The notes under the pieces were generated by a model. It did not search any database. It was not told where the DNA came from and was given only the letters and a program-made list of their open reading frames with translations. Shown here piece after piece: positions 1 through 64,000 of a DNA stretch of 64,000 nucleotides (position 1 is the stretch's first letter; every line of letters starts with the position of its first letter). Made by a program: the position numbers and the translations under genes. Source of the stretch: Struthio camelus. Lineage: Eukaryota > Chordata > Aves > Struthioniformes > Struthionidae. The stretch spans positions 6,434,356-6,498,355 of the forward strand of contig NC_090943.1 in the NCBI RefSeq assembly GCF_040807025.1, read 5' to 3'.

Positions 1-261
1 GCGCTCTGGCACCTTTGCTCTTGCAAACCACTTGGCCTGGGAGATAAGGGAGGGAGTTACAAATGGCAAAGTGCATCTCAGAGGATGCCAGCAGGCTGTT
101 GATTGGGCTGATGGGAAATATGCTGATAGAAGTGCACATTTTATCACATCTGATTAGAGGGTTAGTGATTACAAAGTTTAAACATTAATTTGTCCATTTA
201 AAACATTTTTGTTCATTTAAGCATTGTGTTCTGGTACAGACTGATCATAGGAGCTGTCACC
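1..261. other. 5' flank of SLC22A13-like gene
   Basis: No coding sequence is seen here. This stretch is the upstream region of the transporter gene, and its homology continues to the left window edge. The same sequence, with small indels, reappears in inverted orientation at about 16.46-16.72 kb, so the duplicated unit began at or beyond position 1. Confidence 0.6.
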
Positions 262-654
262 ATGTCTGGGTTTGGAGACATCATAAGTGCTCTGGGGGAG
301 TTTGGGCTATTTCAGAAATGGCTGGTAGTGCTGCTCTCCCTCCCCGTCCTTTTGACTGCTTTCCATATGCTTGGCCAAGTGTTCATGTCAGTGGACGTGC
401 CCCATTACTGCAACACCAGCTGGATCCGGGCGGTCGACCCCAACCTGACTGAGGACGAGCAGCTGAACCTCACTGTCCCCTGGAGCACGAGTGGGGCATA
501 CGAACAGTGCTCCACATATTCACCTGTGGACTGGGACCTTGGGCCTTGGACCTTGGACCTTTAGGCCATCGTGGTGTATGGCCTAAATGCCACGCAGAAC
601 TGCAGCAACGTCTGGGTGTACCCCTCTGCACAAATGCCATCCCTGCTGACCGAG
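262..654 (+). CDS. SLC22A13: SLC22A13-like exon 1 (contains TAG at 562-564)
   Basis: The start ATG at 262 has a good context (gtcaccATG) and begins [15 protein letters not shown], the family N-terminus. The ORF also contains an upstream in-frame Met at 226, but homology starts at 262. The exon encodes the first helix and the extracellular loop (residue run HYCNTSW, then NLT). It is interrupted by TAG at codon 101, after which [10 protein letters not shown] to PSLLTE continues the expected loop in the same frame. The donor GAG|GTCTGT is weak, but its position matches the human exon 1 end, where the next exon begins with FxLVCDRK. Confidence 0.8.
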
Positions 655-21486: not shown

Positions 21487-24400
21487 TCAGTACTTGAGAC
21501 CAAATCCAAATGGATCTTCTGCAGCCTTTGTAGTCTGGGACTGTGGATCAAACTGCTGCAGCAGTTCACAGGTCTGAAGCCCTTCAGGGTCAGTGACAAT
21601 CTCATCCTTTCCAGTGAGAAAGGAGATGCTGGAGGTGCCCCACAGTGTTGGTGAGACATTTTTTTCTGCTGGGATTTCCTGGCACAGTTCTGAAGAATTT
21701 GCATCGAAGCAAGGTAGAGTTCCTGTCTGTGAATTTTGCAAGTCCAAATGTGGGGAAGTTTTACTTGCTATGCTGTGAAAATCTTGTCTTTTGTCTTCTA
21801 TAGATAACAAAAGGGTATTGTCCTCCAGATCTCTGTTGTCTAACTGAAACTCAGCTTCCTTGAGTAACTCTCCTAAGTGGCTTGATGAAAAAACTGTTCC
21901 AGCCTCGAGCCTTGTGTCCTCGATATCGAAACTCACCAAGCTTTGAATTTCCAGTGGATGAGCACCTTGTTGACTTCTTTCCCTGATGAGATCTTTGTTA
22001 ATATCAGCGGTTGGCACAAACTCTGGAGGAGGAAGTAGAGGGTTTTTCCCACCTTCCAAGGTTACTGCAGATTCTTTCTGGTTTTCCTTTGCTGGCAATA
22101 GAGAGGACCAATTGTCCTGTTGCTGCTGAACCTGCCTTTTTGAAGCTGATTGTTCATGAATGTCAAGTTCCATTACCTCATGTTTATCAATGCGTGAAAT
22201 GCTTGCATCAGGAGCTAACAACAGGTCATTGATCTCTTTATTGTCAGTGCTGTCCGAGCAGCCTTCTGAGCTCTCCTGTGTCTCTTTAGGCATGACCTCC
22301 ATCTTCCCTGGCTGTGACAGCTGATTGTTCTCGGAGGCCTTTTGCTTGGCTTGGCTGGAGGAGCTGAGGAGGCCCTGGGGCTCTTCCTGCTTGTCTTCAG
22401 GATTTGTTTGTTCTGAGGATCTTTCAGGATTTTCTTGTTGATTCTGCTTCTTCTCTGAGGAGTAACCAAACAAAGTGACAAAAGCTGACTGGGGTTTACT
22501 GGGTTTCCTTTCAGTTGTTGTTTCCTTCTTGAGAGTGCTACCTTTGTCTTCAGAACCAAAAAGCGTAGTGAAGGGATTTTTCCCAAGCCTAAAACCTTTA
22601 CCCAGCATCTCTTTCCTGGCTTGACTGTTTCTGCTCTCTTTGCTTTGGGCACCGGGCCTCGATGTATGCACAGTACTTTCCCCTGGGAGTTTCAGATCTG
22701 TTTTCCCTTTGTCCACTGGATGACTTCTAGATTTTTCTGAGGATGCATTCAATTTGGAAGTGTCTAATTTCTTGGATGATTGCTTAGAAATGTGAATGGT
22801 ATTTGTGCTAAGATCATCACTGAGATCCTTAGACTTGAATTTTGTGTTATCTAATTTGCTGACTTCATCATGTGAGGGCCAAGGGACACTGGCTGTGTTC
22901 AGAGACATGTCTGCTGATATTGGAAAATGCTTGGCAGATGATTTTCCATCATGTATTGAGATATCTCCATAAGGGTTATTTGTCAGTGGGCCATACATGG
23001 TCTGAAGTTCTCCTTCTTGTACACAGGACATATTGTGGTCATCTGTTATCTCTGGTAAGCCAGGTGAAGAGACTCTATTCTTCTCCGGCTTATTTTCCTG
23101 ACGTGTATGCTCAGGACTACCTTCTTCCAGAAACCCTGATACACTTATTGGCGTCATTTCTTTTGTCTTCCCAAATTCTGCCACTTTACTCTCAACCTCA
23201 GGCAAATGACCTACACTGGGTGGCTGTGTATTCTCCTCCAGAGGTGCTGGTATCAGTTTTCCAGGAAACTCATTGGTGTTTGCCTTTGATTTCTCATTCA
23301 CCAGCTCGGCTGGCCCAGCTGATGCCGTCAGTCCTCCAGGCTCTAGGGAACCACATGCTACATAAGGGGTCACTGACACACTAGAGAGGCAGGAGGTTTT
23401 GGCTTCAGCTTCATAGTCAGGGAGAACAGCACCCTCAGCTCCAAGTTTTGGCACCATATTTGTGGTGTTTCTGGTTTCAGGCTCTCCTGGCACACAGATG
23501 GACAGTGGGTTGTTCCTTCTCTCTTTGAGGTGATGCTTGTCTTCTGCAGCAGCTGGGGTGCCTACAATCAGTTCAGGCCTGTCATCTGTCACTGGTGTTG
23601 TGCCTGCTTCACTGGATATGCTCAAAGGGGAAAGAGTCCCACAGACCTCATTTTCCTCTGCTGGGAGCTCTGCTGTGGTGAGGTTGCAGCCCCCAGTGGC
23701 AGCCAGGTACATCCAGTTAGTGGGTTTAGTGCTCTGAAGCGTGGCAGGATGCAAAATGAATGATCTGTGAGCAAGAGATTTAACAGGTCGCAGGACTGCG
23801 GATGAGGAGGCAGAGACAGACCCTCTCTTCAGCTGGGGTTTGCTCTGCTGGAACATAGCAACTCGCTCAGAGACCTTGCCCCCTGGTTTCCCTTTGGGTA
23901 TGTTCCCATCCGTGATCACCGGCTTCTTTTTGTTACCTCTCTGTTCTCCTGGCTTAGGCCAGGAACAAGCTTGCTCTCTCTTTTCAGGACAAGTGAGCCC
24001 AGGTAAGAAGCTTCCCTTCTTCAGAGCTGTCTCTGCTATTGGTTTTCCCTCCTGACTGCTGAGCATCATCCTGCCCACTCCGCTGCCCACAGCCTGGCAG
24101 ATTTGCAAACTCGGTGCAATCTTCTTCCAGGAACACACTCCATTTCCATGCTTTCCATCTACAGCCCCCAAGGCTGTTTCTGAAGGCGGCCAGTTGGTTC
24201 TTAGCTTGTTTCCTAAGAGGACAGACCTGCTGCTCAGCTCTTGTTTTTGCTCAGCCAGCTGCAAGCTGCACCGTCCTGCAAAGGATGTGGGTTTCTCTCT
24301 TGCTTCGGTTTTCTTTTCGGCCCTATTATGCCAGTACTGGGGCTGTGGTCCTCTGCCTGCCATTGCCACTCTTTGGACCTGATGGTCTACTAGCTGGTGC

Positions 24401-24499
24401 TCTAGCCTTCTTGTCTCGCTTCTGCTTTTCACTTCAGCCATTTGCTTGTAGTGGAGCTGGCAGTAAAACACTCCGTGGAGGGCAGCATAGTTTTGCAAG
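21487..24499 (-). CDS. LIM gene terminal exon: second half of LIM domain plus long disordered tail
   Basis: Acceptor atgtgtgttttccag. With the previous exon's AG, the first base makes Ser, giving KLS-LQNYAALHGVFYCQLHYKQ, the second zinc finger of the LIM domain (C-x2-H). About 970 further residues are rich in Ser, Glu, Lys and Pro with no membrane segment or other recognised domain. Two related motifs, NPFTTLFG and SAFVTLFG, lie about 30 residues apart near residues 640-680 of this exon. The frame stops at 21487-21489 after DPFGFGLKY. The frame shifted by one base stays open to 21174. The open frame extended upstream to 24510 is intronic. An unbroken 3 kb ORF argues strongly for real coding sequence. 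Confidence 0.9.
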
Positions 24500-30400: not shown

Positions 30401-33400
30401 AGGCACACCACCTCTGCTGCCTTCTCATTCGGAGGAAAGTGGTACAGGCTAGCGTTCAGACTCTTATATAAGCTTCTTGCTCAGTCTCCGTTCACCTACA
30501 CAGGCTCCAGGATTGGGTGATGTGTGTTACCCTGGACTCAATGGTGAATGAATGCCGCCCACTTGGTAAAGACGGTGCAGATTAAACCTCTCAAGTGATT
30601 CAGAACATCCTCAGTATGTGATTCAACTAGTTCATTGAGAGACGATTTCTGCTACTTTGAAAGGAAGCAAGCACTCAACAAAAGAAAGTCAGCCAGACCA
30701 AAATATTTTTTTAGAGGTAATGTTTACCTTCCGAATGCAGCAATAAAAGTTAAAAAAAGCCACAAAATATCTAAAATCTTGAGTTGAGAATGTACAAAAC
30801 AAAGTTGTAATAAAAAGAAAATCGCTTTACAAAGTTTCCAAATAAATTTAAACAGTAAACATGTATGAAAGCATGGAAAATCTAAAATAAGGTTTTTGTA
30901 TATACTGAATAATAAATTACAATTCTAAAATAAAGAAAGGAAAGCAATAACCATTCTATCTCACCTACAGCATCTTTCATTGAATCTTTCTTCAGGGCGA
31001 TGGCAATGATAATAGCTGTGAATCTTAACTTAGACAATTTTCAGTACCATTGAGTACGTTCCAGGAACTGAACTCTGCTAAATAGCTCCCCTACCCATTG
31101 TGATAGCGATTTGAGATTCTTTCTTTTTTTTTTTTGATTTTTGCTTTCTTTTTTTTATTAATTGCTAAGAGAAAGCCTCTCTAACCCACCTATCAATGTG
31201 ACTATATGTATATATACATATATGCGTGTTTAGGATACCCTTCTTGGGAAGTCTATACTAAAATCCGAAAAAGAAGATAGCATAAAGGTGCTTATTTCCC
31301 AGTGACCAGATTTCCTGGTTCTTTTGTTGGCCTATCCTTTCTTCTGCTTTGGTTCTGAGAAGCCTGGTACAACCTCCCCAAAACACTTTAGGAGAAAGAA
31401 GCTGCCCTAAGATGCCCATGGATGAATTTTCCCTTGTGCTTCTGACAGTGTCAGGGCTTAGGGTTGTGGTGCAGCACCAAGTCTCTTGGGTTGGCCAGGT
31501 GAAGGCTGTTGTTTGCCTCCAATGTTAAGGCAGAGTGCATCTGTCCTGTCTGTATGAAAACACCAAGATGAGGACCTTGAGAACTCCTTAGGGTGTAGAC
31601 AAGTCCCTTCATGTAATTCGGATAAACCAGGAGATTTATTGTTGTGGACTTTGTTTTTCACTTTGTATAGTTGTTTCCTGTTCTTCAGGATCTCCTATTT
31701 CTTTGGCTTGGAGTTGCCAAAGGTGACAAAGACTACGCCCGGCTCTTGAAAACTGCCATTGGTGTGGAAGCCTTCGCTGGGACTCTTTAAGTACCTCCGA
31801 AAAAGGGGTAAGGCAGATACCTCATATCTGGGATGAGATGCCACATCACACGTGGAGGAGGTTTGGGTCTCGGATTGCTTGGTGACTGTAGTAGATGAGG
31901 TGATGATTTTGTTTCCAAACTGATCTGTTTCCTCGTACTGCTCTGTGACAGTCCGTGTGGCTCCATAGAGCTTGGACCCATCAGGCCCGGTCTGCAGCTC
32001 CAAGATACTCTTCTGCCTTCGAGGGTTCTGTGGGCTGGGGACATTCAGAGAGCAGTAGTCTGAAAAGCCTCCTTTGATCCCACAGTGGCAGCTACCTTTG
32101 GAGGTGTCCAGAGGGCACCTCTCTTTCTCACTGATCTGATGACTGGCTTTGCCAAGGGGAGGCTGCTTTGCTGAGCTCAGCCCAGCTTTCATTTGGATGG
32201 GCTCTGGTCTATTCTCGAAGGACGCTATGTCATGCTCAGAAGACCTTGCTGATGGATGGCTAAAGGAGCTAAAGCTGTCCTGAGCAAAGGCATCCCTCTT
32301 TCCAGAAGCATTGAGATAGTCTGGTGAAGGGGTGTCCCATGGGGAATGTGCAGTCCTGGGTGAGTCTGCGGGTTTCCTGGCGGCAGACTCAATGGAGATG
32401 TAGGAAGGTGAGGAGGGAGAGCTGACACGAGGATGAACCAGGTGGGGGACCTCTAGCTCTTCTTTGGGTACTTCAGTCTTTTTTGCCACCTTTGCACACC
32501 CCACAGGCACTGCCTCCTCTGTCTCCAGTGTGGTGCCCTCCTGCTTGGCTTTGCTTGAGACAATGCTGATTTTGCGGATATTGCTGCTGCTCACAGGGCT
32601 CTGGGTGTTCCCTAGAGACTCCTTGAACAGCCCAGAGAGCCCAGCAATGTCTGACTCAGACTTGAGACTAGAGACAGAATAAAGAGCTTTTCTGATGGCC
32701 TCCTCAATGTCCAGGAGCCGGGCGAGTGTCTGTTCCTTCAGGTGGATAATCTCAGCACTCGCTCGCTCCAGGTCTCCGAAAACGAGCTCTACTGAGGAGA
32801 TGTTGTCAGTGTCCTCCTTCCCTGATGTCTCAGCCCTGGGCTGTTGCTTGGCCTGGTGGGCCTTCTGGCGAACCACCCAGTCAGGGACCTTTTCGAAGAA
32901 ACTCCTCAGGGCTTTCACATCCACTTTGCTTGTCTCTTCCTCAAACTCCTTCACCCGAGTCAAGATCTCTTGCAGCTCCTCCTGCCTCCTCAGGTTCTCA
33001 AAGATCTCCATAGCCTCCTTGACGTTGCCTTTCATGATCTCCTCTTTATGCACAGACAGCCTCTTCCGACGTTCATCTTCTGTTTCTCTCTTGGGTTTTT
33101 CTCTCATGATCACTGCTGGCTTCTCGGGGGCAGGCATCTCTGCCTCTGCACCAGCACATTTCAGTTGTCTGCTGTTCTCCTGCAGTTGCTCCTGGAAGGA
33201 GTTCATTGGCAGCTGATGGAAGGACGTCATTGAGTGACCATCTTGTTTCCTCTCTTTCACCTGCTGTATGACTCTTTGACCATCCCATGATCCATAAGCA
33301 TTAGACATACTTTCCCTTTCCGCCTTGGGTGAGGCATTTTGTGCAATATCATCTCTTCCTTTGGGAGGAGTAGTGTGGCCCACAGAGGAGGTGCTTAGCT

Positions 33401-36400
33401 CAGTCTGCCCTAGTGCATTAAGTGTCCTTGCTCCACTGGGACAGGCTAGCTGTGATAGTGAAGTACACCCATCCTCTTGGCTGCATGGCTCTGTATGCCT
33501 CTGAACTATCTCATCTGGGTAGCTCCCTGGAGCTGCTGCTTTCTCTCTCATCATTCCCTGCTCAGCTTCAAAACCGAGCGCTCCATTTTTAAGTGGCTTT
33601 GAGGTCTTAGCGATGTCTGATTCTACCTTGCTTTGTCCTCCTTTGCTTATCTTGTACCTTTCCTCTGCAATTTGAAGAGGGGTTTTGACAGTGTCTTTTG
33701 GTGGCTGTTTCTCAAGGCTCACGTCCTGAGCAGTGACAGATTCGTCCACTGGTGACTCTGAAGTGCAGCATTTTGCCTGAACCTCTTTGTGTCCTGATTG
33801 TTCTTGCACTTCCGCACAGCACAGTCCCAGGTCTGATGGTGAAGACGTTGGCTTGCTGACCTCCCTCAGGCATGGAGATTTCAGAGGCAGGGGTGGAGGG
33901 ATGGGTTTGACTGATTTGCTTTTGCTATTGCTTGCAGTGGCAGAATGTGCCTCATATGAGAGGTGCTCAGGTTTTGGAGGGGGAAGAGGTTTTTTCCTTG
34001 GTGGGGCAGTAGTTTCTGGTTTTGGAGGAATTCTGGGCTTCTCTGCAGGACTCTGATCACTGGGTTTGGAGGACAGAGGAAGGAGGGCAGGAAGAGGGGT
34101 CTGTAGTGTTGCAGAACATCCTGGGGCTGCATCTTGGATGGCTGCTTGTGGAAGGGCACCTTCTGTTGTTGCTTTAGTTGAGGGTGGGCAATGTTCTGCT
34201 TTCATCACAGCAACTGGGGGAGGAGGAGGAAAGTCATTATCAGCCTGTGACCCTGAAGCCACTACTGCTGTCTGGTTACTAAGGACTTGAGTCTCATTTT
34301 TCTTTTTACACACAGAACAGGACTGCCCTGCGTTTCTGTATATCATAGCAGCTTTAAAATCCCCTTTGGAGACATTAACGTTAGACTTTTCCAGTGACTG
34401 AAGCGTGGCCTTTAAATTACCTGGGACAATATCCTCCTTTTCTACCAGGCGCTGTTCTGTGGCGGCACTTTGCAGTGCTCTGATAGCTGTCTGTACATCC
34501 CCTCTGATAATAACATCTCGCTCTCTTTCTTCTTGCACTGATTGCTCTTTGTAATCAGACTCAAGAAAAGGGTTTATATAGGTTTTCACAGGCTTGGCGG
34601 TATAAAGGCCATCCTTAATGCTAACATCTGCACTAGGCACAACTTGGCATTCCTGGCTCAACAGCTGTCCTCCCTGTACTTCCTCAGAAGCACTGACCTT
34701 TTTGTGTGATGCTATGGTCTTCTGAGACACGCTTGTGTGGGTCTTGGATGCCTCCTGCATTTTTGTGGTGGTCGTCCTGGTGGCAGTGCTGGTGCTTTCC
34801 TGCTTGGTTGCAGAGTCTTGTTGCTGTGTGGTTGATTGAAGGGTCATTGTCCCCTGTGTGCTGGCTGCCTGATGCCTGCAGGCCACCTGGACTTCCTCTC
34901 TGCTCTTCTGTAGCTTGCTCTGGACGTGGTGCTGAATGCTTTTTGCCTCTGCTGTTGCTAGCCTCAGGCTTTGCATTGCAGCCTGGAGGTCACTCCCAAG
35001 CGCCTTTTCTTCTGGCTGTCCTGACACCTGGCTGGCTTCTCCAGTCATCAAGCTCTGGTATTTGCCAGCTAGTTTGTCCCTTTGAACTGCAACTTTGGTC
35101 TGGGCTGTGCCTTGCGCCATAGTTTTGGGTTCCATCATGCTGGCAGAGACAGTCTCTTCTTTCTCTGCCATTTGCTGCTTCTTGCTGCCATTTGCAACCC
35201 TTTGAATTGACTTTGTAGTCACTTTAAGCCCACCTGATAGAATTTCTTCCTTTTCCATCACTGTGGGCAGGCTCAGGGGCTTCCCAAGACATTGCACAGT
35301 GGTGGGCCTCATTCCCACTGCCTGCACAGCCTCTCTGTCTAATGCACCCTCTTTGCCCATGCTTTCACATGCAAACACATTTTTTGCTCCCTCCACAGCC
35401 CCCGGCTCACCCTCTGTAATCACCTTCTCCGTTTGCTCATCCCTTTGTAAGATATGTATCATGGCCCCCTGCACATCCCGTGGGGCACTCTCAGCTCCCC
35501 CCTGTTCTGCTTGAGAACAGACAAGGGACTGTATCTCTGACTCCTGCTGGAGGTTCTTCAGATACTCCAGATCTCCCTTCTCGATGCAGCTGGTGAAAAG
35601 CTGGACGTTCCCCTTCTCATTGTCCTCCCGCTTGACGGTTGCTGTTGCTCTCTGCTCCTGAGAAGAAGCCAGCAGGTTCCCTATTGTGGTCTTCACATCC
35701 CCCTTGACAACTTTTTGCTGGACAGAGTGGAACAGGAGGGAGTAGAGAGTCATCTTCACTGATCCTGTCTTTGTCTCTTGTAAGACCATCCCCTTTTTGA
35801 TGGAGGCCTCTTGACTGAGGAGGCCCTGGAGAGCCTTAGCCACATTTCCGCTTAAGTCCTCTTTGCTTTTAACAGCTTCACTTGGGTCCAGCAGCTGCAA
35901 CGGGCTCACTTTGATCTTGCCCTCTCTGTCCTCTTCCACCAGCACTCCCTGTGCTTCCACGTTGGTTCTGTGCAGAAGCTGAAGCATGATTCTTTGCAAA
36001 TGGCCTCTCACAATCTCTTCTTTCAGGACTTCTGGAGCACCTGGGCTGCTGAGTTGGTACTTAACCATCTTCACGCTCTCCATATCCTTGGCTTCGATGA
36101 CGATCCCACTATGCTGAATAGCCTGGCAAGCACAGAGCATCTCCAAAGTCTCCTTCATGGTCCTTTCTTTCCCTTCTGTTTCTGCATGGCCTTCAGAAGC
36201 ACTCAACTTATCTAAGGGCGTGCTTTCAAAGAGCCATGTTGTGCTTTTTACATCTGCATGAGGGATAGCTTCCTGGGCCTCAGCACTGGCTGTCACCTCA
36301 GCATCCTTGAGGGTGTCCATAGGCTGGGTTTCAAACAACCAGGTGCAGCGTTTCACATCCCCTTTCTGGCTGTCCTCTCTCTGCACTGTGCTGATAGATG

Positions 36401-57400: not shown

Positions 57401-60400
57401 GCTAACTATAGACTCTCAGACCCTTTTAATCACTGACGTCCTTCGTGACAGCTTTCTCCGGATCAGCTTGTATTCTCAGTGCAGCCAGGGTTGTTGCCTG
57501 GTGGGTGATGGTTTAGCTGCTTGGGAAGATGGGCTTTCCGAAGGAGCATATCCAGCTTTTTCCTCTGAGAAATGCTCAGGACTCCCTCAGTGTCCCGGAG
57601 GTGACTAAGCCATATCTGGAAAGAGGTACAGCAGCTGATGCTTTGACTTCACGTGTCATTATTCAGCAGTGAACCATTGCACGGACATGCATTTGCTGAT
57701 AAGCCAAATGCCAGGCAGCAGAGTTGTGTTGGACACTGCCAAGCTGTTGTCCTCCACAACACTGAGGCCCAAATTAGAGCCTGAGAAATGTCCTCAGTGC
57801 TTAAGTTTATAACACTGCGTGGCTTCAAAGCATCCTGGATGCCTTCCCCATCCCAGGTCACTATATCACCTGGGCTTCTGCTCCTCAGCCTTGGGAGAAG
57901 GCCTGTGGGATTGTCCCTGCGAGAGGGTGAGGAGGCTCCTGTAGCAGACCTGCGTTGCTCGCTGCAGGGTATGCGGAGCACTGATGTCTCTCTCACTCCA
58001 TACGAATGACCGAGAATAGCTTGTGTCTAGGTGTGTACAAGCCTTGTCCCAGAAGAGATATGGGACAGCTCTCTCATGGACATCTTCAGAAAGCATTGCA
58101 AGTCCAGCATTCGCATCAAAGGTAGCCATTGTATTGCCAGTCCCCTTCCGGGCTGTGTTTGCCACCCCAGAAGGACCCCCCTTCCAGGTGGAGTCTAGCC
58201 CTACCAAAGGATCAGTGCTAGAAATGACAGGAGGTCTTTGCTCTTGCAATGGCTTTGACTCAGGGACTGGAGAACAGTGTAAAGCTCTAAGTTAGACAGT
58301 GATTCATCATTCATCAGCCAGAGAAAAAGATGTCCCTAATGGTGTAAAAGGAACAATGCAGCTAATGCTGTGACCCTATTTAGCAAGACAGCGTGGCAAC
58401 TTCACATGTTCTGATATTAAAAAAAAGCAACATCAAATTTATGGAAAATATAGGTCCTTCGTTTACCTATGTGCTCATGTGAGATACCTATTTCCTATGT
58501 AGCTATGTAATTAAATACTGTGTCTCAATTCCAGGCAGCGTGTGATTTTTTTTTCTTGTGGGAAAGAAAAGGAAGGAATGGAAAGGAAAGGGAAAAACTC
58601 TGGACAGCTGGATATGGGATCCCTGGATTCCAGACTGAGGTCTAAAGCAGGCAGGGTGGTCTGCCTTGTCCCAAATCCAGCCATTATGGGATTGCAAGAG
58701 AGTGTTTCTTTTTTGTCCCAAATCTGTGAAACATTCCTGGCAGAGAGTTTTGGTAAAATTCAATCCTTTCCCACACAAGGCTTCAGCTTGGATGTCTCAG
58801 TGTTCACAGAGGCCGCTTGCCCTGAAATATTCCTGACTGCTGTAGTGCCAGTGATATCATATCATTAGGGATCACTTACATATTCTATCTGAAGCCAAGG
58901 ATGGTGTCTGATACACCACTGCTGCCAAATTCAAAAAGGAGTCCAGTCAGACTCCTTAGTTAGGTAAGCCTCTCCCCAGAGAGCCTTTCCATTTTCCCGC
59001 CCTCAAGGCTGAGGTGCAGGGAGAAATTACTCATCCCAAGCGAAACATGGACGTGCTTATGCCCTTGTGCTTGATACAAGCTATTTTTAAAAGTTGAAAT
59101 AACAGCATGTGGACAGTCAACATGGCTCTGTGGACTCATCAGTGGCCCAGACCCGAGCTGCTTTGGGCTTTGCCAGCTCTATGCAACGGGTGGATGGGCC
59201 CATTTTGGACTGGAAGGAGTACAGCTGCAGTTATGTGGTTGCCTGATCTCCTCATTGCACTCCCTGTCCTCAGCCGCACTCCTGAACAGTCAGCTCTGGC
59301 AGTACCCACGCGACATGCAGACAGGACCAGAATCACTCCACCAGTCTCTGCTCTCCATTACAGGTTAGGTGGGAAACACAACTTCCCCCACGGACCAAAG
59401 ATGCCCCTTCCCAGTTGCAGCTACAGAGCTGGCACTAGAGTAGCAATGATGACCAGGAAGCAAAATCAATTCAACTCACAGCTTCTGCCCATGGCTGAGT
59501 CAAAGGCTGTCTCTGGTATCATGGAGATAATGGCCTGTTTGTCGCTGGGGAGCTTCCCTTCCTGTGTGGGAATGACAACAGGTAAGCAATTAGATCTCCA
59601 TAAACAGTTAAATTCCCATAAACAGAGGAGAGGAACCAGGTAAAGCCCCAGTGTGGGGAAGGCAACTGCACCAGAAAGTTTCCAGAGGTGAAGGTGTCCC
59701 TGACATTGCCTCCATGTACTGGGCTTGGTTTGGCCTTTCTCCCTGTAGACCTAACCACGGCCTTGACTTTGCTCGTTCTTTCCAAGCACAGTGCTTCACA
59801 GGTCCTTGGGCGTAGCATCCATCTCTTCAGAGAGAAGTGGCAGTTTCTCTAACCACCCAACATTTTTTAGGCCACCATGGCTGATTTCTCTTTCTCGGTC
59901 AGGTTTATCCGTTTATTTCTTTTACCTGTCCCCACAGTGATTTTGGTTTCTCAAGCTCAGTAATGATCAATGTTGTCCTTCACAGCACCCCCTGGGAAGC
60001 AACCAGACCGCCCTGCGGAGCAGTAATCACCGGGGCAATACCATATAGCAATGAAATGTCCCTGACCATGTCAGAGAGGATCTTGCCCAGATTTAGTATT
60101 ACTGATGCTAATGACCTCGTGGGACTCTCTTGTTTGCTGGATGTAGGTCCCTGTAGATCTCTTTTCTATTTCTACTAACTCCTTCACTCTAGAGGTCTTG
60201 GACCACTGCCCTGTTGTGTTTGCATTGATAAGGGCTACAGATCACAGACCTATGTGTGCTTGCAGGTGATGTCCTCTCTGCTCATAGCTCTCAAGAGAGC
60301 AGGGAGGCGGATGCTGCGCAGCCTCAATTAAGTGCCTGTCCTCGGGGGCACCCTGAGTGCGTTCCTCCTGCCTTTTTTCCCAGTTATCAGAGGAGGGATT

Positions 60401-63400
60401 GTTGCAAGGAATAGCCTATTGAAAATACGACCTGTGCTCCTGATAACAGACAGCATTAAATCACTCAGAGATGGATGGGATTAGAGGTACACTATGTCAG
60501 AGTACAGAAAGAGAAAAGGATGTTTAGACTGAGAGGACTGGGTCAAGGAGATGTGTTGTTGTGTCTGGTTAGAGTAACAGCACTGGAAGCTAGTTTAGGC
60601 TGCAGATGACATTATCAATTTGTTCCTGCTGGTAGATATCGCCTGATTCTAGACAACATTAACTGCTTGCATGAACGGGCACCATTTCCATCTTATTTGA
60701 TGCTTTATTATTTAATGGTAGGATCAAGTCTGTCTTTCACTCATCACAGCAAGTGGTACCCCTATTCCACTGGACACTGTGGCATTGCAGAACGTGGCCC
60801 AAGGGAAACCCAGCATGTGTTTGGTGACTTGGTGGTGTGTCTGCCAGCTTTTAACAGCTTAGGAAGAGGGGTACCCTCCATGCCACGGGGCGGTAATGTG
60901 CAAAGGGGCCAGGGTTTTTGGTGGTAGGCTCTTCTGCTCACCTGCACCATGCCCAGGAGCAAGGTCTATCCTGACAGGTAGCTCTGGTTTCACAACACAG
61001 GTCCACATTGAAACTAGCTCTCCTTCCCTAGCTATGGTTGCTGCTCCACAGGGCTCCTCTCAGGCCCAGGGGAAACAGTGGATGATGAACCACCAACACG
61101 AAGCACAACCATTCATAAGCACGAATCTGGATACCCAAAGAAAACAGATTTTGGAAGTACTTTGGAAGAATAGCACTCATTAACCTTTGCTGTGGACTCT
61201 TTCCACGTGATGGTGGCAGGACTCCGTTGTGCCTTCCTCTGGTTGCCCTGAAGAGACGAAGAGAAGGATGGATCTTTACAGGGTTTTCTCTCTCTGCTCA
61301 TCAGGGGCTGGATTGTTGTCATGATCCTGGTGTCAGCCTCCCTCTTCCTCAAGATGCCATTGGGAGATGCTGTCTTGAGCAGAGTAGAAGATAAAGTCTT
61401 ACTCCTTGGAGTGGCTTTAGGGGTGTCACAGCTGGTCAGGAGCCCTCTGAAATTCCTCTTTGTTAGGCTGATGTTATGCATGGGAAGATGCTCCATGGAC
61501 TTGCTTCTGGAAGCGTCATTAGGATGGTTTTGAGTTAAGGCACATTTTTTTCCTACTGGATCGTCATTAATCTGTGATAGATGTCCTCTCTCCATGAGCT
61601 AAAACAAAACAAAACAAAACAAACCTCAGAATAGGCTTGTATCTAACTTCCGTAAGAAAGCCACTACAATATTAATTTCTTACATTTCTATTGCAAGTAT
61701 CACATCTGTTAGTCTTTAAATCTCAGGATGAAAGGGTTTTTCATCACTTTATGGTCTGTGTTCCTTGGAATAAATCTCAGGGGCACGATTTAAAAACATT
61801 CTAGCCCTTTCCGAACTGTGGCAGAGGTTTCTATCTTGCCTATTTCCTATGTGTCTCCCTGATTTGTCCACAGTCACGTAAGCCTTAGAGTAGAAAAAGT
61901 GTGACCGCTGGTTGTCTTCCCTCTCAGACCAGAGCTAGGAGCTAAATCTATTCATGAACTTGATGTCTAAGTCCCATTACAATTAAAAGACCCAGGAAAG
62001 TGATTTCCTTACCCTGGGGTACATAATTTCATTTAGTAGGTAGTTAGTGTCATTTGAAATGCACACGTGGGTTGACCACCCACACAGCCTCCAGCTGCTG
62101 CAGCAACAGGGCAGAGATGCCCCAGTGTCGCATTTGTCAGCCCAGTGTGGATGTCTAGGTGCCTTAATATCTTTGGGTGCTTTCATTTCAGGCTGAGTAC
62201 TTCCTTCACTTTCTAACCACTAAATCCTCTTTGAGGGCCTTCCATAAGGCTCTGCCCCTGTGATTTGTTAAGTTCAGAACAATCTGAAGGTAATAAAAGA
62301 AGTTTTCATCCCATTATGCAGCAACTTTTATAAGTAAGCCCATCTGGATACCTTTTGGGGGAGGGGCAGATTCTGACCTACCCTGAGATATCCTCAGAAC
62401 AGCACCTGCAATTGAGAAAAAAAGCATGCTTTTTGGGCTCCCGTTGCTAAGAACTGGAGCATTCTGCTGTCAGGACATGCTCTGTCAACCTCATCTGAGC
62501 CTTTGGCTCTCACCTTGGGATGTTCTTGCTTTGACATGTTGCTTTCACAGTCCAAGATGCTCTGGTACCTGCAGGGGACATAGGAGAGAGCAGCTTAGTC
62601 CGTTTTTAGCCAGGACGTTTAGGACTTTTGTTTGTTTGCTTGTTTTGTTTTCCTGCAGTGTGCAGGATCTTTCTGTCTCCCCCTACCCTCTGGAAAATAT
62701 CAGGCCCAACTGACTTCAAAGGTAGTCTCTAGGGGTGAGAGAAATTTGAAAAATCCTCCAAAGAGACCTGACTTTAAATCTAATGGGTTAGTTTGGTAGA
62801 GCGTCACTGGATCCAGTGCGAGCCCTCCCCTCCTCCTCCCACGCTCTGAGCCCAGTGCAAACACGTCCCTGGAGCGCACTATCTCCCCATTGGTGAAGGG
62901 GAGAGGATCTGCTGGGGGTTGTGTTAGTTGAAAGTGGTGTCTTACTGCATTTGGTGATACGTGGCTTGCTTCTGGAGTCAGACTTTCCAGAAGGTTGAGA
63001 CGTTGTTAATTTATTTAGCTTTAACATAATATTAAGGGGTTTAGCAAGTCAATGACTGCCCTATCATAACAGCAGTGACAAGTGAGATCTCTGCAGAAGG
63101 AAAGAAACCAACCTCCTTCTCTTCTTTGCTGTGGCGGTACACGTTCATCTCTCTCTCTAAAGACCTCAGTCCGATAGGTGACTTCTTTTTACAGTGAAAA
63201 CTGACTAAATTCAGGATATTCAGAACTAAGCTGTCCCTAGGGGAAGTTCAAGAGACAGTCTTGACAGCTGCTCTTTCACCTCCACGTTAAGTGAGATGAA
63301 CCGCCAGTACCATTGCTAATCTTATTTGTTTCACTCTTGGCACTGTTGCGGTCTAATCTCAGTTATGGGTTGTAACCAAAAGGGAAAACAGCCCTTAAAG

Positions 63401-63954
63401 GGCTTGGGTTGAAATATGACTCTCCCTGGAGCATTTTGGTTAGAAACAGTTGATGAGAAACTGGAAGGGGATGAGAAGTCTACATTTCTCTTGTCCCCTC
63501 ACAAGTAACTCTCTCCAACATTTGCTGGTTTCCTTAGTGGCACCTTAGAGACTATCAGTGTTAAAAGCTTTAATTCCCCACCTGTGAATGCTCCAGTCAT
63601 CAAGGTCGAGGGTAAATTCTTCTATGTGTCATTGCATTTGGGTAGTTTTGTCAAGTAGGTCTGGCTTTTAAATCAGGACTGGTCTACCGTGACTAAATAA
63701 TGTATCAATAATATATAATAGCTAGAGGCACTTATGACAGAAAAGTACCTGCCTCTAGCTCAAGACCTGACCTGCTGGGAAGCTTTTCTTGGGAAAGAGC
63801 TTATCTGAGTGAGATCTGTCTGTTATGGAGGTGGGAGAGGGAAGAATGCACCCTGGAAACCCCCAGCTCTGATAGCAGATTAACCACTCACCTGGCCACC
63901 AGTTCAGAGACAGACATAGATTTTCTCAGAGGAACTGCTCTGCGCTCTAGACGG
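21487..63954 (-). CDS. EPLIN/XIRP2-like LIM-domain gene spanning the XIRP1 locus (8 phased exons, 5' end outside window)
   Basis: Eight minus-strand exons (63954-63892, 62568-62514, 61598-61185, 59561-59480, 43078-42921, 41222-41169, 25727-25606, 24499-21487) join without a stop and with matching phases. N-terminal segments (KSMSVSELVARYQ; FDS; SVKELSALYLSQAAA) resemble EPLIN (LIMA1) blocks that end in a KYQxA motif. The LIM domain follows (C-x2-C, H-x2-C, C-x2-C, C-x2-H) and is closest to LIMD2/LIMA1/XIRP2, then a roughly 970-residue hydrophilic tail. EPLIN-type proteins bind and bundle actin. The XIRP1 giant exon lies between exons 6 and 7 on the same strand, as in XIRP2. The gene is either a LIM-containing XIRP1 form or a separate gene hosting XIRP1. 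Individual upstream exons are less certain than the LIM exons. Confidence 0.65.
24500..25605 (-). other. Intron within the LIM domain
   Basis: 1.1 kb intron splitting the LIM domain after KL. Contains a short poly-G run near 24608-24620 and a CR1 fragment at about 25208-25316. Confidence 0.8.
25208..25316 (+). mobile_element. CR1 3' fragment
   Basis: Matches the CR1 3' region: gagcaacctgcccttgctgg, gaggctggatgga, then gaggtcccttccaacctaca. About 110 nt, truncated at both ends, and it lacks the terminal ATTCTATGA units. Confidence 0.7.
25606..25727 (-). CDS. LIM gene exon: first zinc finger of LIM domain
   Basis: Acceptor ctctccttttcttcag with strong donor AG|GTGAGT. It encodes PMLKEACTSCLEPVYSMERV, then CLHRSCFCCQVC and RRKL. 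The first half of the domain shows the ligand spacing C-x2-C-x16-H-x2-C-x2-C-x2-C. The phrase VYSMERV corresponds to VYPMERL in LIMA1, LIMD2 and XIRP2. Phase 0 to 2, exactly completed by the terminal exon. 122 nt, too short to stand out as an ORF. Confidence 0.9.
25728..31694 (-). other. Intron / XIRP1 3' UTR region
   Basis: 6 kb between the XIRP1 stop codon and the first LIM exon. No coding exon is supported. The part nearest 31694 is XIRP1 3' UTR, and an AT-rich stretch (30.7-31.2 kb) includes poly(T) and short TA runs. Confidence 0.6.
31635..31640 (-). terminator. Candidate poly(A) signal of XIRP1
   Basis: AATAAA on the minus strand, 55 nt after the XIRP1 stop. A second one lies at 31159-31154. 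Which is used cannot be told from the sequence. Confidence 0.3.
31695..39425 (-). CDS. XIRP1: XIRP1 (Xin) giant coding exon, 27 Xin repeats
   Basis: Xin binds and bundles actin filaments through 16-residue Xin repeats and localises to intercalated discs and myotendinous junctions of heart and skeletal muscle. The single exon encodes 2576 residues. The start MAEVQKSSKVAIKKMEEDL is chosen because a splice acceptor (actgtttccctaaag) ends right before this ATG and the upstream ORF extension is intronic. The vertebrate block LRRLYRHMHPELRKNLEEA is near residue 75. I count 27 repeats of the type GDVKxxxWLFETQPLD at about residues 107-1072. Next come conserved helical spacers, proline-rich segments (DFPPPPP near 1730; RKKPLPPPKPEH near 1805), a charged helical stretch near 2105-2185, and the conserved C-terminal block LELQTGPDGSKLYGATRTVT near 2470-2490, the filamin-C-binding region in human XIRP1. 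Human XIRP1 is 1843 residues with 16 repeats. The identity is XIRP1, not XIRP2, by the C-terminus and the IKDGLYTAKPV block. Confidence 0.97.
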   Translation of the reverse strand: MAEVQKSSKVAIKKMEEDLSPAPALGLVQVSAPTAGSQDPSSLPVPPPKQSFSKFYQQRQVNELRRLYRHMHPELRKNLEEAVTEDLAEMLNTEGPNAQASVNLDKVLPGEVQSMRWIFENWALDSIGDHQATKKLTEEEVIPGGDVKSTSLRFESQSVNGDRLSTPTKASQTDHAKGDVHTARWLFETQPLDSLNKLYSDETEVQEAILKEPVQGGDVKGARQLFEAQSLDAIGRCCSVEEKSILQLKSEIQELKGDVKKTIKLFQTEPLCAIRDKTGNIHEIKSVCREEIQSNAVRTARWLFETQPLDTINKDTSKVQIIRGISLEEVGRPNVSGARWIFETQPLDAIREITVEEQDFKASMDFTTGADVSKQRMLFETQALDSLKGEASESVTAKEQVIGGDVKSTLWLFETQPMETLKDNFEVGHLKKVELSAEEKGDVRQRKHVFETCPLGSISTASEKEISAASAEEVVKGDVKSFKTLFETLPLDSIKQADVEPITKEVEQIPAGNVKANQILFETTPLYAIKDSFGNFHEVTSVSREQVISGDVKNYKWMFETRPLDQFDESTKKVDIIRGITKQEVVAGDVRTAKWLFETQPMDVIHHQAMQGEEHPLVKREVSQRGDVKTCRWLFETQPINTLYEKVEKKREEDGYVPQADVKSYTWMFETQPLDSLKGQEEQYLQVSKAYSQDDSEGVDVKTVRHLFETEPLGSGVATKADLKETVRYCSRVEIQSGEVSRVKEFFEAKPLDTAIKPTVVMKDDGKIEAGSVHKFTWLFENCPMDSLKDSSEGIQEIPLEKDIKGGDVGGKRFIFETYSLDQIHDKVDETEIQKIQKDTMSKANVKSCTMLFESQPLYAIQDKEGGYHEVTSVQKEEILKGDVKGARWLFETKPLDQIKKEEEVFVIRAVTQEDIKKGDVQAARWRFETEPLDSFSRGERSVPRTVDDVLKGDVQSNKELFESQKVGQKKYVRMVSVSDVQRGDVRTSTWLFENQPVDSLHGDADRSSSISTVQREDSQKGDVKRCTWLFETQPMDTLKDAEVTASAEAQEAIPHADVKSTTWLFESTPLDKLSASEGHAETEGKERTMKETLEMLCACQAIQHSGIVIEAKDMESVKMVKYQLSSPGAPEVLKEEIVRGHLQRIMLQLLHRTNVEAQGVLVEEDREGKIKVSPLQLLDPSEAVKSKEDLSGNVAKALQGLLSQEASIKKGMVLQETKTGSVKMTLYSLLFHSVQQKVVKGDVKTTIGNLLASSQEQRATATVKREDNEKGNVQLFTSCIEKGDLEYLKNLQQESEIQSLVCSQAEQGGAESAPRDVQGAMIHILQRDEQTEKVITEGEPGAVEGAKNVFACESMGKEGALDREAVQAVGMRPTTVQCLGKPLSLPTVMEKEEILSGGLKVTTKSIQRVANGSKKQQMAEKEETVSASMMEPKTMAQGTAQTKVAVQRDKLAGKYQSLMTGEASQVSGQPEEKALGSDLQAAMQSLRLATAEAKSIQHHVQSKLQKSREEVQVACRHQAASTQGTMTLQSTTQQQDSATKQESTSTATRTTTTKMQEASKTHTSVSQKTIASHKKVSASEEVQGGQLLSQECQVVPSADVSIKDGLYTAKPVKTYINPFLESDYKEQSVQEERERDVIIRGDVQTAIRALQSAATEQRLVEKEDIVPGNLKATLQSLEKSNVNVSKGDFKAAMIYRNAGQSCSVCKKKNETQVLSNQTAVVASGSQADNDFPPPPPVAVMKAEHCPPSTKATTEGALPQAAIQDAAPGCSATLQTPLPALLPLSSKPSDQSPAEKPRIPPKPETTAPPRKKPLPPPKPEHLSYEAHSATASNSKSKSVKPIPPPLPLKSPCLREVSKPTSSPSDLGLCCAEVQEQSGHKEVQAKCCTSESPVDESVTAQDVSLEKQPPKDTVKTPLQIAEERYKISKGGQSKVESDIAKTSKPLKNGALGFEAEQGMMREKAAAPGSYPDEIVQRHTEPCSQEDGCTSLSQLACPSGARTLNALGQTELSTSSVGHTTPPKGRDDIAQNASPKAERESMSNAYGSWDGQRVIQQVKERKQDGHSMTSFHQLPMNSFQEQLQENSRQLKCAGAEAEMPAPEKPAVIMREKPKRETEDERRKRLSVHKEEIMKGNVKEAMEIFENLRRQEELQEILTRVKEFEEETSKVDVKALRSFFEKVPDWVVRQKAHQAKQQPRAETSGKEDTDNISSVELVFGDLERASAEIIHLKEQTLARLLDIEEAIRKALYSVSSLKSESDIAGLSGLFKESLGNTQSPVSSSNIRKISIVSSKAKQEGTTLETEEAVPVGCAKVAKKTEVPKEELEVPHLVHPRVSSPSSPSYISIESAARKPADSPRTAHSPWDTPSPDYLNASGKRDAFAQDSFSSFSHPSARSSEHDIASFENRPEPIQMKAGLSSAKQPPLGKASHQISEKERCPLDTSKGSCHCGIKGGFSDYCSLNVPSPQNPRRQKSILELQTGPDGSKLYGATRTVTEQYEETDQFGNKIITSSTTVTKQSETQTSSTCDVASHPRYEVSALPLFRRYLKSPSEGFHTNGSFQEPGVVFVTFGNSKPKK
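36200..39110 (-). repeat. XIRP1: Xin repeat array (27 units in protein)
   Basis: Units of 16 residues (consensus GDVKxAxWLFETQPLD) occur every 30-40 residues, separated by variable acidic linkers. Only the protein is repetitive; DNA units have diverged. A degenerate isolated unit (MKGNVKEAMEIFENL) occurs much further C-terminal, near residue 2140. Confidence 0.95.
39426..41168 (-). other. Intron upstream of XIRP1 giant exon
   Basis: 1.7 kb. Contains two MEF2-consensus sites (40868-40877 and 40984-40993), a palindromic TTTATAAA at 40343-40350 and a strong minus-strand donor AAC|GTGAGT at 40225/40224. It could hold a proximal noncoding first exon, but no coding sequence is seen. Confidence 0.5.
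40868..40993 (-). promoter_or_regulatory. Pair of MEF2-consensus sites
   Basis: CTAAAAATAA (40868-40877) and TTAAAAATAA (40984-40993) both fit YTAWWWWTAR. Xin has been reported as a MEF2-dependent cardiac gene. About four matches are expected by chance in 64 kb, so only the pairing near the gene carries weight. Confidence 0.35.
41169..41222 (-). CDS. LIM gene exon preceding the Xin/LIM choice point
   Basis: Acceptor tctctgtcttttccag, donor AAG|GTAAGA, 54 nt, phase 0 to 0. Only one frame is open (TTVKDSSIHSPDSQKTGK). Because it ends in phase 0, it can splice either to the XIRP1 giant exon (starting ATG, phase 0) or to the first LIM exon (phase 0). Confidence 0.75.
41223..42920 (-). other. Intron with alternating purine-pyrimidine tract
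   Basis: 1.7 kb intron. The segment 42450-42720 is rich in TG/TA dinucleotide steps. No exon is recognised. Confidence 0.6.
42520..42715. repeat. Degenerate TG/TA alternating tract
   Basis: Interspersed tatatata, tgtgtatgtgtatgag and gtatatatatgtatatgtgc units form long alternating purine-pyrimidine stretches. It produces spurious His/Tyr/Ile-rich frames. Confidence 0.8.
42921..43078 (-). CDS. LIM gene exon with EPLIN-like SVKELSALYLSQAAA block
   Basis: Acceptor gcatcggtctctgtttcag, donor CCC|GTAAGT (very strong), 158 nt, phase 1 to 0. It encodes ERTRAFLDVPDDTSHILHRR and RGRSSAPSVKELSALYLSQA, then an Ala/Pro stretch. The latter aligns with EPLIN's SETSIKDRMAKYQAAVS block. A second acceptor (ggcgtttttag) 25 nt further in keeps the same phase. 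The exon lies in a CpG-rich patch. Confidence 0.75.
43195..43221 (+). repeat. (TTA)n / poly(T) microsatellite
   Basis: Trinucleotide array running into an uninterrupted T stretch. Confidence 0.9.
44192..44229 (-). CDS. Possible alternative cassette exon (38 nt)
   Basis: Acceptor ttcctccccttttccag and donor AAA|GTGAGT are both strong. Phase 2 to 1, and it joins exon 43078-42921 in frame, giving VVFISSSQVSSQ. Together with 44401-44349 it forms a phase-consistent alternative to exon 59561-59480. The length is small and chance is not excluded. Confidence 0.3.
44349..44401 (-). CDS. Possible alternative cassette exon (53 nt)
   Basis: Acceptor cactttctcttctacag, donor AAT|GTGAGC, phase 0 to 2. 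It encodes GGPHPPSCLSATEGPPQ in the usable frame. Other frames are also open, which weakens the call. Confidence 0.25.
47808..47999 (+). promoter_or_regulatory. Possible + strand promoter and first exon in GC-rich patch
   Basis: A TATA-like cataaaagc at about 47808 is followed by a GC-rich leader, an ATG in fair context at about 47973 and a good donor (CCCGGG|GTGAGC) near 47998. No downstream + strand exon is recognised, so this may be a noncoding transcript or chance. Confidence 0.25.
52451..52676 (-). promoter_or_regulatory. Candidate muscle promoter and noncoding first exon of XIRP1
   Basis: On the minus strand: MEF2 consensus CTAAAAATAG (52676-52667), then TGATAAAA (52627-52620, GATA-like and TATA-like), an E-box CAGCTG (52618-52613), about 140 nt, then a near-perfect donor CTCTCT|GTAAGT at 52451/52450. 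A transcript starting near 52590 could splice to the XIRP1 giant exon, whose acceptor lies exactly at its ATG. Human XIRP1 likewise has a noncoding first exon. The elements are seen; their function is inferred. Confidence 0.4.
59480..59561 (-). CDS. LIM gene exon with EPLIN-like FDS block
   Basis: Acceptor cctgttgtcattcccacacag, donor AGCT|GTGAGT, 82 nt, phase 0 to 1. It encodes EGKLPSDKQAIISMIPETAF followed by DSAMGRS. The preceding exon ends in phase 0 and exon 43078-42921 starts in phase 1, so all three join in frame. The TAFDS segment sits where EPLIN has STFDS, a similar distance before its SIKDRMAKYQ block. The opposite-strand 178-codon frame here is a shadow. Confidence 0.6.
59562..61184 (-). 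other. LIM gene intron
   Basis: 1.6 kb with no exon or repeat recognised. Confidence 0.55.
61185..61598 (-). CDS. LIM gene exon (138 codons, basic Ser/Thr-rich)
   Basis: The acceptor is a (TTTTG)n run ending in ttttag, and the frame opens LMERGHLSQINDDPVGKK. It contains KSMEHLPMHNISLTKRNFRG, GLLTSCDTPKATPRSK and TASPNGILRKREAD, a basic unstructured segment. Donor AAG|GTTAAT at 61185 is weak; AAA|GTACTT about 30 nt further downstream keeps the same phase and is an alternative end. Phase 0 to 0. It belongs with the LIM gene by phase and composition. No domain is recognised. Confidence 0.65.
61601..61622 (+). repeat. (AAAAC)n array serving as splice-acceptor tract
   Basis: Four AAAAC units. 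On the minus strand they read (GTTTT)n directly before the AG of the 61598 exon. Confidence 0.85.
61623..62513 (-). other. LIM gene intron
   Basis: About 0.9 kb with nothing recognised. Confidence 0.5.
62514..62568 (-). CDS. LIM gene exon (RYQSILDCESN...)
   Basis: Acceptor ctatgtcccctgcag, donor AAG|GTGAGA, 55 nt, phase 2 to 0. Joined to the exon ending AG it reads VARYQSILDCESNMSKQEHP. The KYQ/RYQ motif recurs in EPLIN (FSKYQKAAEE; MAKYQAAV) and at the XIRP2 N-terminus (MARYQAAV). Confidence 0.75.
62569..63891 (-). other. LIM gene intron
   Basis: 1.3 kb. It contains open stretches near 63.0 and 63.1 kb with donor-like ends, but none fits the phase of the flanking exons. Confidence 0.5.
63892..63954 (-). 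CDS. LIM gene exon (first one visible, may be 5'-incomplete)
   Basis: Acceptor ccttccctgttctgtgccgttccccaagcag (an AG 3 nt earlier is also possible), donor AG|GTGAGT, phase 2 to 2. Encodes RLERRAVPLRKSMSVSELVA. The internal ATG at KS-MSVSELV could be a start if this is a first coding exon. Further 5' exons would lie beyond position 64000. Confidence 0.7.
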
Positions 63955-64000
63955 CTGCTTGGGGAACGGCACAGAACAGGGAAGGACTGAGCTGGCCTCA

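What the first reader, a model, noticed from the sequence alone, without database searches (positions are those of the whole stretch)
21487..63954. Unexplained LIM-domain gene wrapped around the XIRP1 exon: XIRP1 may have an XIRP2-like LIM isoform
Seen: eight minus-strand exons with GT-AG ends and exactly matching phases (2-2, 2-0, 0-0, 0-1, 1-0, 0-0, 0-2, terminal) predict an EPLIN/LIMD2/XIRP2-type LIM protein, with the XIRP1 giant exon between the 41.2 kb and 25.7 kb exons on the same strand. Known: in XIRP2 a short form that skips the Xin-repeat exon carries a LIM domain and acts in hair-cell stereocilia. Mammalian XIRP1 is described without a LIM domain. Inference: the ancestral Xin gene had both modules, and this bird locus retains them, giving an alternative actin-binding protein from the XIRP1 locus.
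Basis: partly seen in the sequence, partly recalled or inferred. Interest (0 to 1): 0.85.

Follow-up and report, generated by a model that had tools for sequence, protein, structure and literature searches.

The report
Hidden LIM-protein form of XIRP1
In ostrich, the muscle gene XIRP1 appears able to make a second, LIM-domain protein that skips its well-known actin-binding repeats; similar predicted proteins in other birds and in fish suggest an old trait that the human gene is described without.

Summary
The window is ostrich (Struthio camelus). Eight minus-strand exons with matching splice phases give one frame of 1,334 aa and a LIM domain split across two exons; the XIRP1 Xin-repeat exon (39425-31695) lies between exons 6 and 7. 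Homologs favour one gene with two outputs. Four bird models join the upstream exons to the LIM exon here, and four join them to the Xin exon; two models from one species (flycatcher) share 70 identical residues and part exactly at the end of exon 6. Gar, pufferfish and clownfish proteins share the LIM and tail motifs; pufferfish and clownfish also share N-terminal motifs. I read it as an ancient XIRP1 counterpart of short XIRP2. In my searches of open-licence papers I saw no description of it; human XIRP1 is reported to code within one exon. Not shown: transcripts, expression, function. Against it: 11 of 18 bird LIM models, ostrich's own included, start at exon 7, and 3 more carry other upstream sequence, so a separate gene or second promoter remains possible. 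The proposed actin-repair role is inferred from XIRP2.

The parts
63892..64000 (-). Exon 1 (partial; start codon beyond the window edge), encodes ...RPAQSF...SMSVSELVA(R)
   Evidence: Donor CAG|GTGAGT, phase 2 out; tblastn of P0024 E=2.5e-9
62514..62568 (-). Exon 2, (R)YQSILDCESNMSKQEHPK, phase 2-0
   Evidence: AG/GT and phase; tblastn of P0018 E=6.2e-7
61185..61598 (-). Exon 3, 138 codons, phase 0-0
   Evidence: AG/GT and phase; tblastn of P0018 E=3.6e-44
59480..59561 (-). Exon 4, phase 0-1
   Evidence: AG/GT and phase; tblastn of P0021 E=6.6e-5
42921..43078 (-). Exon 5, contains SVKELSALYLSQAA, seen as SVRERSALYLSRAA in pufferfish; phase 1-0
   Evidence: (P0018 E=5.9e-17)
41169..41222 (-). 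Exon 6, TTVKDSSIHSPDSQKTGK, phase 0-0; branch point: in other birds modelled as joined either to the Xin exon or to LIM exon 7
   Evidence: E=0.027-0.035; flycatcher P0024 and P0041 part here
31695..39425 (-). XIRP1 giant coding exon (Xin repeats), 2,576 codons plus stop; AG at 39427-39426 directly before ATG, phase 0
   Evidence: Pfam Xin E=2.9e-157; AG read; same junction in P0037, P0040, P0041
25606..25727 (-). Exon 7, first half of the LIM domain, phase 0-2
   Evidence: tblastn of P0018 E=1.9e-17
21487..24499 (-). Exon 8, second half of the LIM domain and 987 aa after it; includes the stop codon
   Evidence: emu protein 79% identical over exons 7-8
21177..21486 (-). Out-of-frame remnant of the C-terminal end (...DPLNV...SVLNDGFVDQEFF) that emu and other birds have in frame
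   Evidence: frame shift, real or an assembly error
259..8459 (+). SLC22A13-like transporter exons, the downstream neighbour (tail to tail)
   Evidence: tblastn of P0035: 259-714, 3749-3862, 4630-4791, 6106-6276; a further SLC22-like ORF at 7779-8459 judged by eye only

Best explanation
One gene, XIRP1, with two mutually exclusive products. Transcripts from an upstream promoter carry exons 1-6 and then either (a) splice to the Xin-repeat exon at a phase-0 acceptor directly before its ATG, giving the Xin protein, which stops inside that exon, or (b) skip it and splice to exons 7-8, also phase 0, giving a Xin-less protein with an EPLIN/XIRP2-class LIM domain and a long tail. Shown: exon anatomy, frame compatibility, the LIM ligand pattern, both junctions as gene models in birds, and homologs in fish. 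Inferred: that both RNAs are made in ostrich, and that the LIM form works like short XIRP2, an actin-associated protein recruited to strained or damaged actin in muscle or hair cells.
For: Exact splice phases and one open frame. Bird proteins match all eight exons. The exon 6-7 junction is in P0004, P0018, P0021 and P0024, the upstream-to-Xin junction in P0036, P0037, P0040 and P0041. Flycatcher P0024 and P0041 share 70 identical residues and part at the end of exon 6. The eight-ligand LIM pattern is in 22 of 43 held proteins (18 birds, 4 fish), including all 20 listed with a Pfam LIM domain. Pufferfish and clownfish N-termini match bird ones (best pairwise E 2e-7 to 7e-6; weaker pairs up to 0.008; composition correction off), and the tails share motifs. 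On a LIM tree of 20 rows, birds plus fish lie apart from EPLIN, LIMD2 and mouse XIRP2 at 99/97. A like gene plan, small upstream exons, giant Xin exon, two downstream exons, short forms without repeats but with LIM, is reported for XIRP2. The Met at the start of exon 7 is Leu in duck and Val in P0023, and absent at that place in pufferfish, clownfish and gar P0042, so it is a poor general start.
Against: No RNA or peptide data. Eleven of 18 bird LIM proteins, ostrich's own P0001 included, are modelled as starting in exon 7, and 3 of the 7 that extend upstream do not use exon 6. NCBI often names the LIM part a separate 'uncharacterized LOC'. The bird N-terminus is not significantly like the mouse XIRP2 N-terminal peptide (best E=0.029), and a recalled human XIRP2 N-terminus found the LIM halves but none of exons 1-6. 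Beyond about 92 residues after the LIM, the tail does not match a recalled XIRP2 tail, and the XIRP2 strain sensor is in that tail, not the LIM. The Xin acceptor looks weaker (CCCTAAAG) than that of exon 7 (TTCTTCAG).
Confidence: 0.77

Rival explanations
1. The LIM exons are a separate downstream gene with its own promoter inside 25.8-31.6 kb; models that join exons 1-6 to them are prediction artefacts.
For: Eleven of 18 bird LIM models, ostrich's own included, begin at exon 7, and 3 more have other upstream sequence; several NCBI entries give the LIM part its own LOC. False joins do occur here: P0010 carries an OSR1_C piece and P0035 is fused to SLC22 sequence.
Against: Four bird models use the same exon 6-7 junction, with the upstream exons also used for Xin forms. 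The exon 7 Met is not conserved in duck, P0023 or three fish and has the context CCCATGT. Fish LIM proteins P0038 and P0039 carry a similar N-terminal region.
Confidence: 0.15
2. Both promoters are used: a full N-terminal LIM form and a shorter LIM-plus-tail form starting at or near exon 7, alongside the Xin form. (Overlaps with the best explanation.)
For: Both kinds of model exist across birds.
Against: No start-site data; the exon 7 Met is not conserved throughout.
Confidence: 0.3
3. The LIM part is a decaying relic in ostrich: the frame-shifted end and one LIM residue fewer between the second Cys and His show loss of constraint.
For: The ostrich C-terminal end is out of frame relative to emu and others; ostrich has one residue fewer in the LIM.
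Against: The rest is open over 1,334 aa, identity to emu over exons 7-8 is 79%, all eight ligands are kept, and among 12 bird rows the LIM is more alike (84%) than the part after it (64%).
Confidence: 0.07

Closest known systems
Short (Xin-less) XIRP2 isoform of mouse and zebrafish (PMC10259482, PMC3280289; passages)
   Same: Giant Xin exon skipped; LIM made by exons behind it; frame-compatible upstream exons; long tail after the LIM; a WPP motif after the LIM (in XIRP2 recalled)
   Different: Different gene (XIRP1); N-terminus not significantly like the mouse XIRP2 peptide; tail of 987 aa against a reported 470 aa, aligning with a recalled XIRP2 tail over its first ~92 residues only; mouse long XIRP2 reads exon 8 in another frame, whereas the ostrich Xin form stops inside its own exon
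EPLIN (LIMA1) and LIMD2 LIM domains
   Same: Closest solved LIM sequences: 2lzu E=2.4e-19, 2d8y E=3.4e-14
   Different: No Xin exon (recalled); apart from bird and fish XIRP1 LIMs on the tree (99/97)
Canonical XIRP1/Xin isoforms A, B, C
   Same: Same locus and, in some bird models, the same upstream exons
   Different: Human XIRP1 is reported to code entirely within exon 2 (PMC13267782) and zebrafish xirp1 to be one large exon with intra-exonic splicing; the passages read mention no LIM form

Membership tests
LIM-domain proteins (Pfam PF00412) | Profile match above the curated cut-off | tested here: met
   30.4 bits against 22.9
LIM-domain proteins (Pfam PF00412) | Eight zinc ligands in CxxC..HxxC-CxxC..CxxH order | tested here: met
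   Ostrich (P0001 and the window) and 22 of 43 held proteins match; the other 21 do not hold the pattern (Xin forms or models without a complete LIM)
XIRP1 (Xin) gene | Xin repeats in a giant exon at the same locus and strand | tested here: met
   21 Xin stretches, between exons 6 and 7
XIRP1 (Xin) gene | LIM and Xin forms share exons | tested here: inconclusive
   Met in gene models of other birds (flycatcher P0024 and P0041 share 70 aa); not seen in RNA, and not in the ostrich entry P0001
Short-XIRP2-type isoform | LIM exons behind the Xin exon, frame-compatible with upstream exons | tested here: met
   compare
Short-XIRP2-type isoform | N-terminal region homologous to XIRP2 | tested here: inconclusive
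   Best E=0.029 against the mouse peptide; recalled human N-terminus found none of exons 1-6
Short-XIRP2-type isoform | C-terminal domain recruited to strained actin and binding actin monomers | not testable with these tools
   Only the first ~92 residues after the LIM align with a recalled XIRP2 tail; needs cell assays
Short-XIRP2-type isoform | Expressed transcript | not testable with these tools
   No RNA collection is held

The most novel reading that the evidence does not exclude
The ancestral vertebrate Xin gene was a two-output actin-maintenance gene, Xin-repeat bundler or LIM-plus-tail strain sensor, and both daughter genes inherited it. Birds and fish keep XIRP1-LIM as a second force-recruited actin-repair protein in muscle and hair cells, while mammalian XIRP1 lost it, perhaps when the gene was separated from its SLC22A13 and OXSR1 neighbours.
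Probability: 0.3. Interest if true: 0.75.

Novelty: new member of a known kind. Interest (0 to 1): 0.57.

Why it matters
Human XIRP1 is described as coding within a single exon. A conserved LIM output in birds and fish would mean that work on XIRP1 in chick and zebrafish may have missed a second product, that databases often split one gene into XIRP1 and an 'uncharacterized' neighbour, and that the two-module design known from XIRP2 predates the XIRP1/XIRP2 split. Its diverged second tail would also help to map which parts of the XIRP2 tail sense strained actin.

Tried and rejected
Considered and set aside: (1) LIM exons as chance ORFs: rejected by bird and fish homologs. (2) Fish LIM proteins as XIRP2 rather than XIRP1: held unlikely because pufferfish and clownfish N-termini match birds and not the mouse XIRP2 peptide, and because birds plus fish lie apart from mouse XIRP2 on the LIM tree (16 of the 22 held LIM proteins plus the window's own, only half of the mouse LIM, no fish XIRP2). 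Synteny in fish was not tested. (3) Bird XIRP1-LIM as replacement for a lost XIRP2: the loss stated in 2008 for chicken (PMC2478706) does not agree with an annotated chicken XIRP2 on chromosome 7 (PMC4205046) and with the label XIRP2 in a chick hair-cell gene list (PMC6855842). (4) Endocytic-type DPF/NPF motifs in the tail: above shuffled counts, mainly in fish; kept as a lead, their meaning is recalled.

Led nowhere: AlphaFold of P0001 with 14 sequences gave mean pLDDT 31, 17 of 1,043 residues at 70 or more, so no fold search was made. Searches scored only the 7,989 candidates sharing most words, and one search found 231 candidates, all bound to share exact words and to have 0.55-1.75 times the query length; so the lack of reptile, amphibian and mammal hits is not evidence of loss.

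Confidence went from 0.80 to 0.77 and that of the separate-gene rival from 0.13 to 0.15.

Full report
Identity of the window. A search with the joined LIM exons returned an ostrich (Struthio camelus) protein at 100% identity (P0001), so the window is ostrich. The giant minus-strand ORF at 31695-39587 carries 21 Xin-repeat stretches (Pfam Xin E=2.9e-157); related bird entries with Xin repeats are named XIRP1 or XIRP1-like where they are named.

Anatomy. A script placed eight minus-strand exons with AG/GT borders and exact phases: 63892-63998 (runs off the window), 62514-62568, 61185-61598, 59480-59561, 42921-43078, 41169-41222, 25606-25727 and 21487-24499, giving 1,334 codons and one stop. Exon 1 is cut by the window edge, so the start codon is not in the window. 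The LIM domain is complete only when exons 7 and 8 are joined; it passes the Pfam cut-off and is nearest in sequence to LIMD2 (2lzu) and EPLIN (2d8y) among solved structures.

One gene, two outputs. Exon 6 ends in phase 0. The Xin exon has an AG directly before its ATG (39427-39426), also phase 0, and exon 7 starts in phase 0, so exon 6 could be joined to either. Other birds show both joins as gene models. LIM form: P0018 (Pithys), P0021 (a passerine cluster), P0024 (Ficedula) and P0004 (Anas, from exon 5 on). Xin form: P0036 (Hirundo, joined from exon 5), P0037 (Patagioenas), P0040 (Oenanthe) and P0041 (Ficedula), joined from exon 6. In Ficedula the two models share 70 identical residues and part at the last residue of exon 6. 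These are predictions from public annotation; I do not know which have RNA support.

Against this. Of the 18 bird proteins with a full LIM pattern, 11 are modelled as starting in exon 7, ostrich's own P0001 among them. Of the 7 that extend upstream, 4 use exon 6 and 3 do not: P0010 has an OSR1_C piece, P0022 and P0023 other sequence (Pfam). NCBI often names the LIM part as a separate locus. The exon 7 Met is Leu in duck and Val in P0023, is absent at that place in pufferfish, clownfish and gar P0042, and has the context CCCATGT. I therefore think that upstream exons are normally needed, but an internal start may also be used.

Depth. The second search found a Takifugu protein named 'Xin actin-binding repeat-containing protein 1-like' with a LIM domain (P0038); the third found clownfish (P0039) and two gars (P0042, P0043). 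Best pairwise E-values of four bird N-termini against the pufferfish one are 1.7e-6 (ostrich), 2.2e-7 (antbird), 2.2e-7 (P0021) and 7.4e-6 (flycatcher); against clownfish 2.0e-6, 2.8e-5, 3.6e-4 and 0.008 (low-complexity filter and composition correction off). The best match of these to the mouse XIRP2 peptide is E=0.029, and of the fish N-termini 0.045; that peptide may lack the start of the protein. Three tail motifs are kept between birds and fish: KLRxxWPP, GKNPFxxLFxS and LxxLFxxSSEK, the last two less well in gar. A LIM tree of 20 rows sets birds plus fish apart from EPLIN, LIMD2 and mouse XIRP2 (99/97), but the fish are not a supported group (59/0), only half of the mouse LIM was available and no fish XIRP2 was included. 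No reptile, amphibian or mammal hit appeared, within the limits of these word-based searches.

Mechanism. For XIRP2, papers report small upstream exons, a giant Xin exon and two downstream exons; in zebrafish, splicing of the short exons makes a LIM domain in repeat-less forms (PMC3280289, passages), and in mouse exon 8 is said to encode the LIM and exon 9 the tail (PMC10259482, passages). In mouse the short form gathers at gaps in stereocilia actin, and XIRP2 is needed for their repair; the 470-residue tail, not the LIM alone, is recruited to strained stress fibres, and the tail also binds actin monomers directly or indirectly. By analogy the XIRP1-LIM form is most likely an actin-associated maintenance protein. 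AlphaFold gave no confident fold for the tail, which fits disorder but could also reflect the shallow alignment.

Surroundings. SLC22A13-like exons lie at 259-6276 on the plus strand, and a pigeon model joins the LIM part to an OSR1_C (OXSR1-type) piece (P0010), which suggests the order SLC22A13 - XIRP1 - OXSR1 in birds. From memory, human SLC22A13 and OXSR1 are neighbours and XIRP1 lies about 0.9 Mb away; a rearrangement could have cut the LIM exons from mammalian XIRP1. Untested.

Literature. Human XIRP1 is stated to code entirely within exon 2 (PMC13267782, passages), and zebrafish xirp1 is described as one large exon (PMC3280289, passages). Ten searches were made; the listings, and the passages I read of seven papers (PMC3280289, PMC10259482, PMC2478706, PMC4205046, PMC6855842, PMC5005036, PMC13267782; abstract and outline also of PMC2478706), describe no XIRP1 LIM form. 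I did not read the other listed papers, and the library lacks most subscription journals. The 2008 statement that chicken lacks Xin-beta/XIRP2 (PMC2478706) does not agree with an annotated chicken XIRP2 on chromosome 7 (PMC4205046, one passage) and the label XIRP2 in a chick hair-cell gene list (PMC6855842, two passages). The 2008 search used Xin repeats, so a chicken XIRP2 with few or no repeats would reconcile them; untested.

Verdict. It is a new member of a known kind: the XIRP1 counterpart of short XIRP2.

Noticed in passing
21177-21489 (-): The ostrich tail ends 89 aa earlier than the emu protein; the missing end is still readable in another frame. Frame shift or assembly error.
   Followed up: partly
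16153-16481 (-): A second SLC22-like fragment on the opposite strand to the SLC22A13-like exons (tblastn E about 1.5e-20), perhaps a pseudogene copy.
   Followed up: no
tails of P0039, P0042, P0043 (fish) and exon 8 homologs: DPF, NPF and D[LIV]F motifs exceed shuffled means (clownfish 14 DPF/W against 0.26; gars 3 NPF against 0.10 each), like endocytic adaptor motifs (recalled).
   Followed up: partly
P0010, P0013, P0035: Public gene models join the LIM or tail part to an OSR1_C piece (P0010) or SLC22 sequence (P0035), or give the tail alone an SLC22A13-like name (P0013): annotation errors that hide this gene.
   Followed up: partly
chicken XIRP2 (not in the window): A 2008 paper found no chicken Xin-beta with a Xin-repeat query, yet later annotation has a chicken XIRP2; bird XIRP2 may have lost its repeats.
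   Followed up: no
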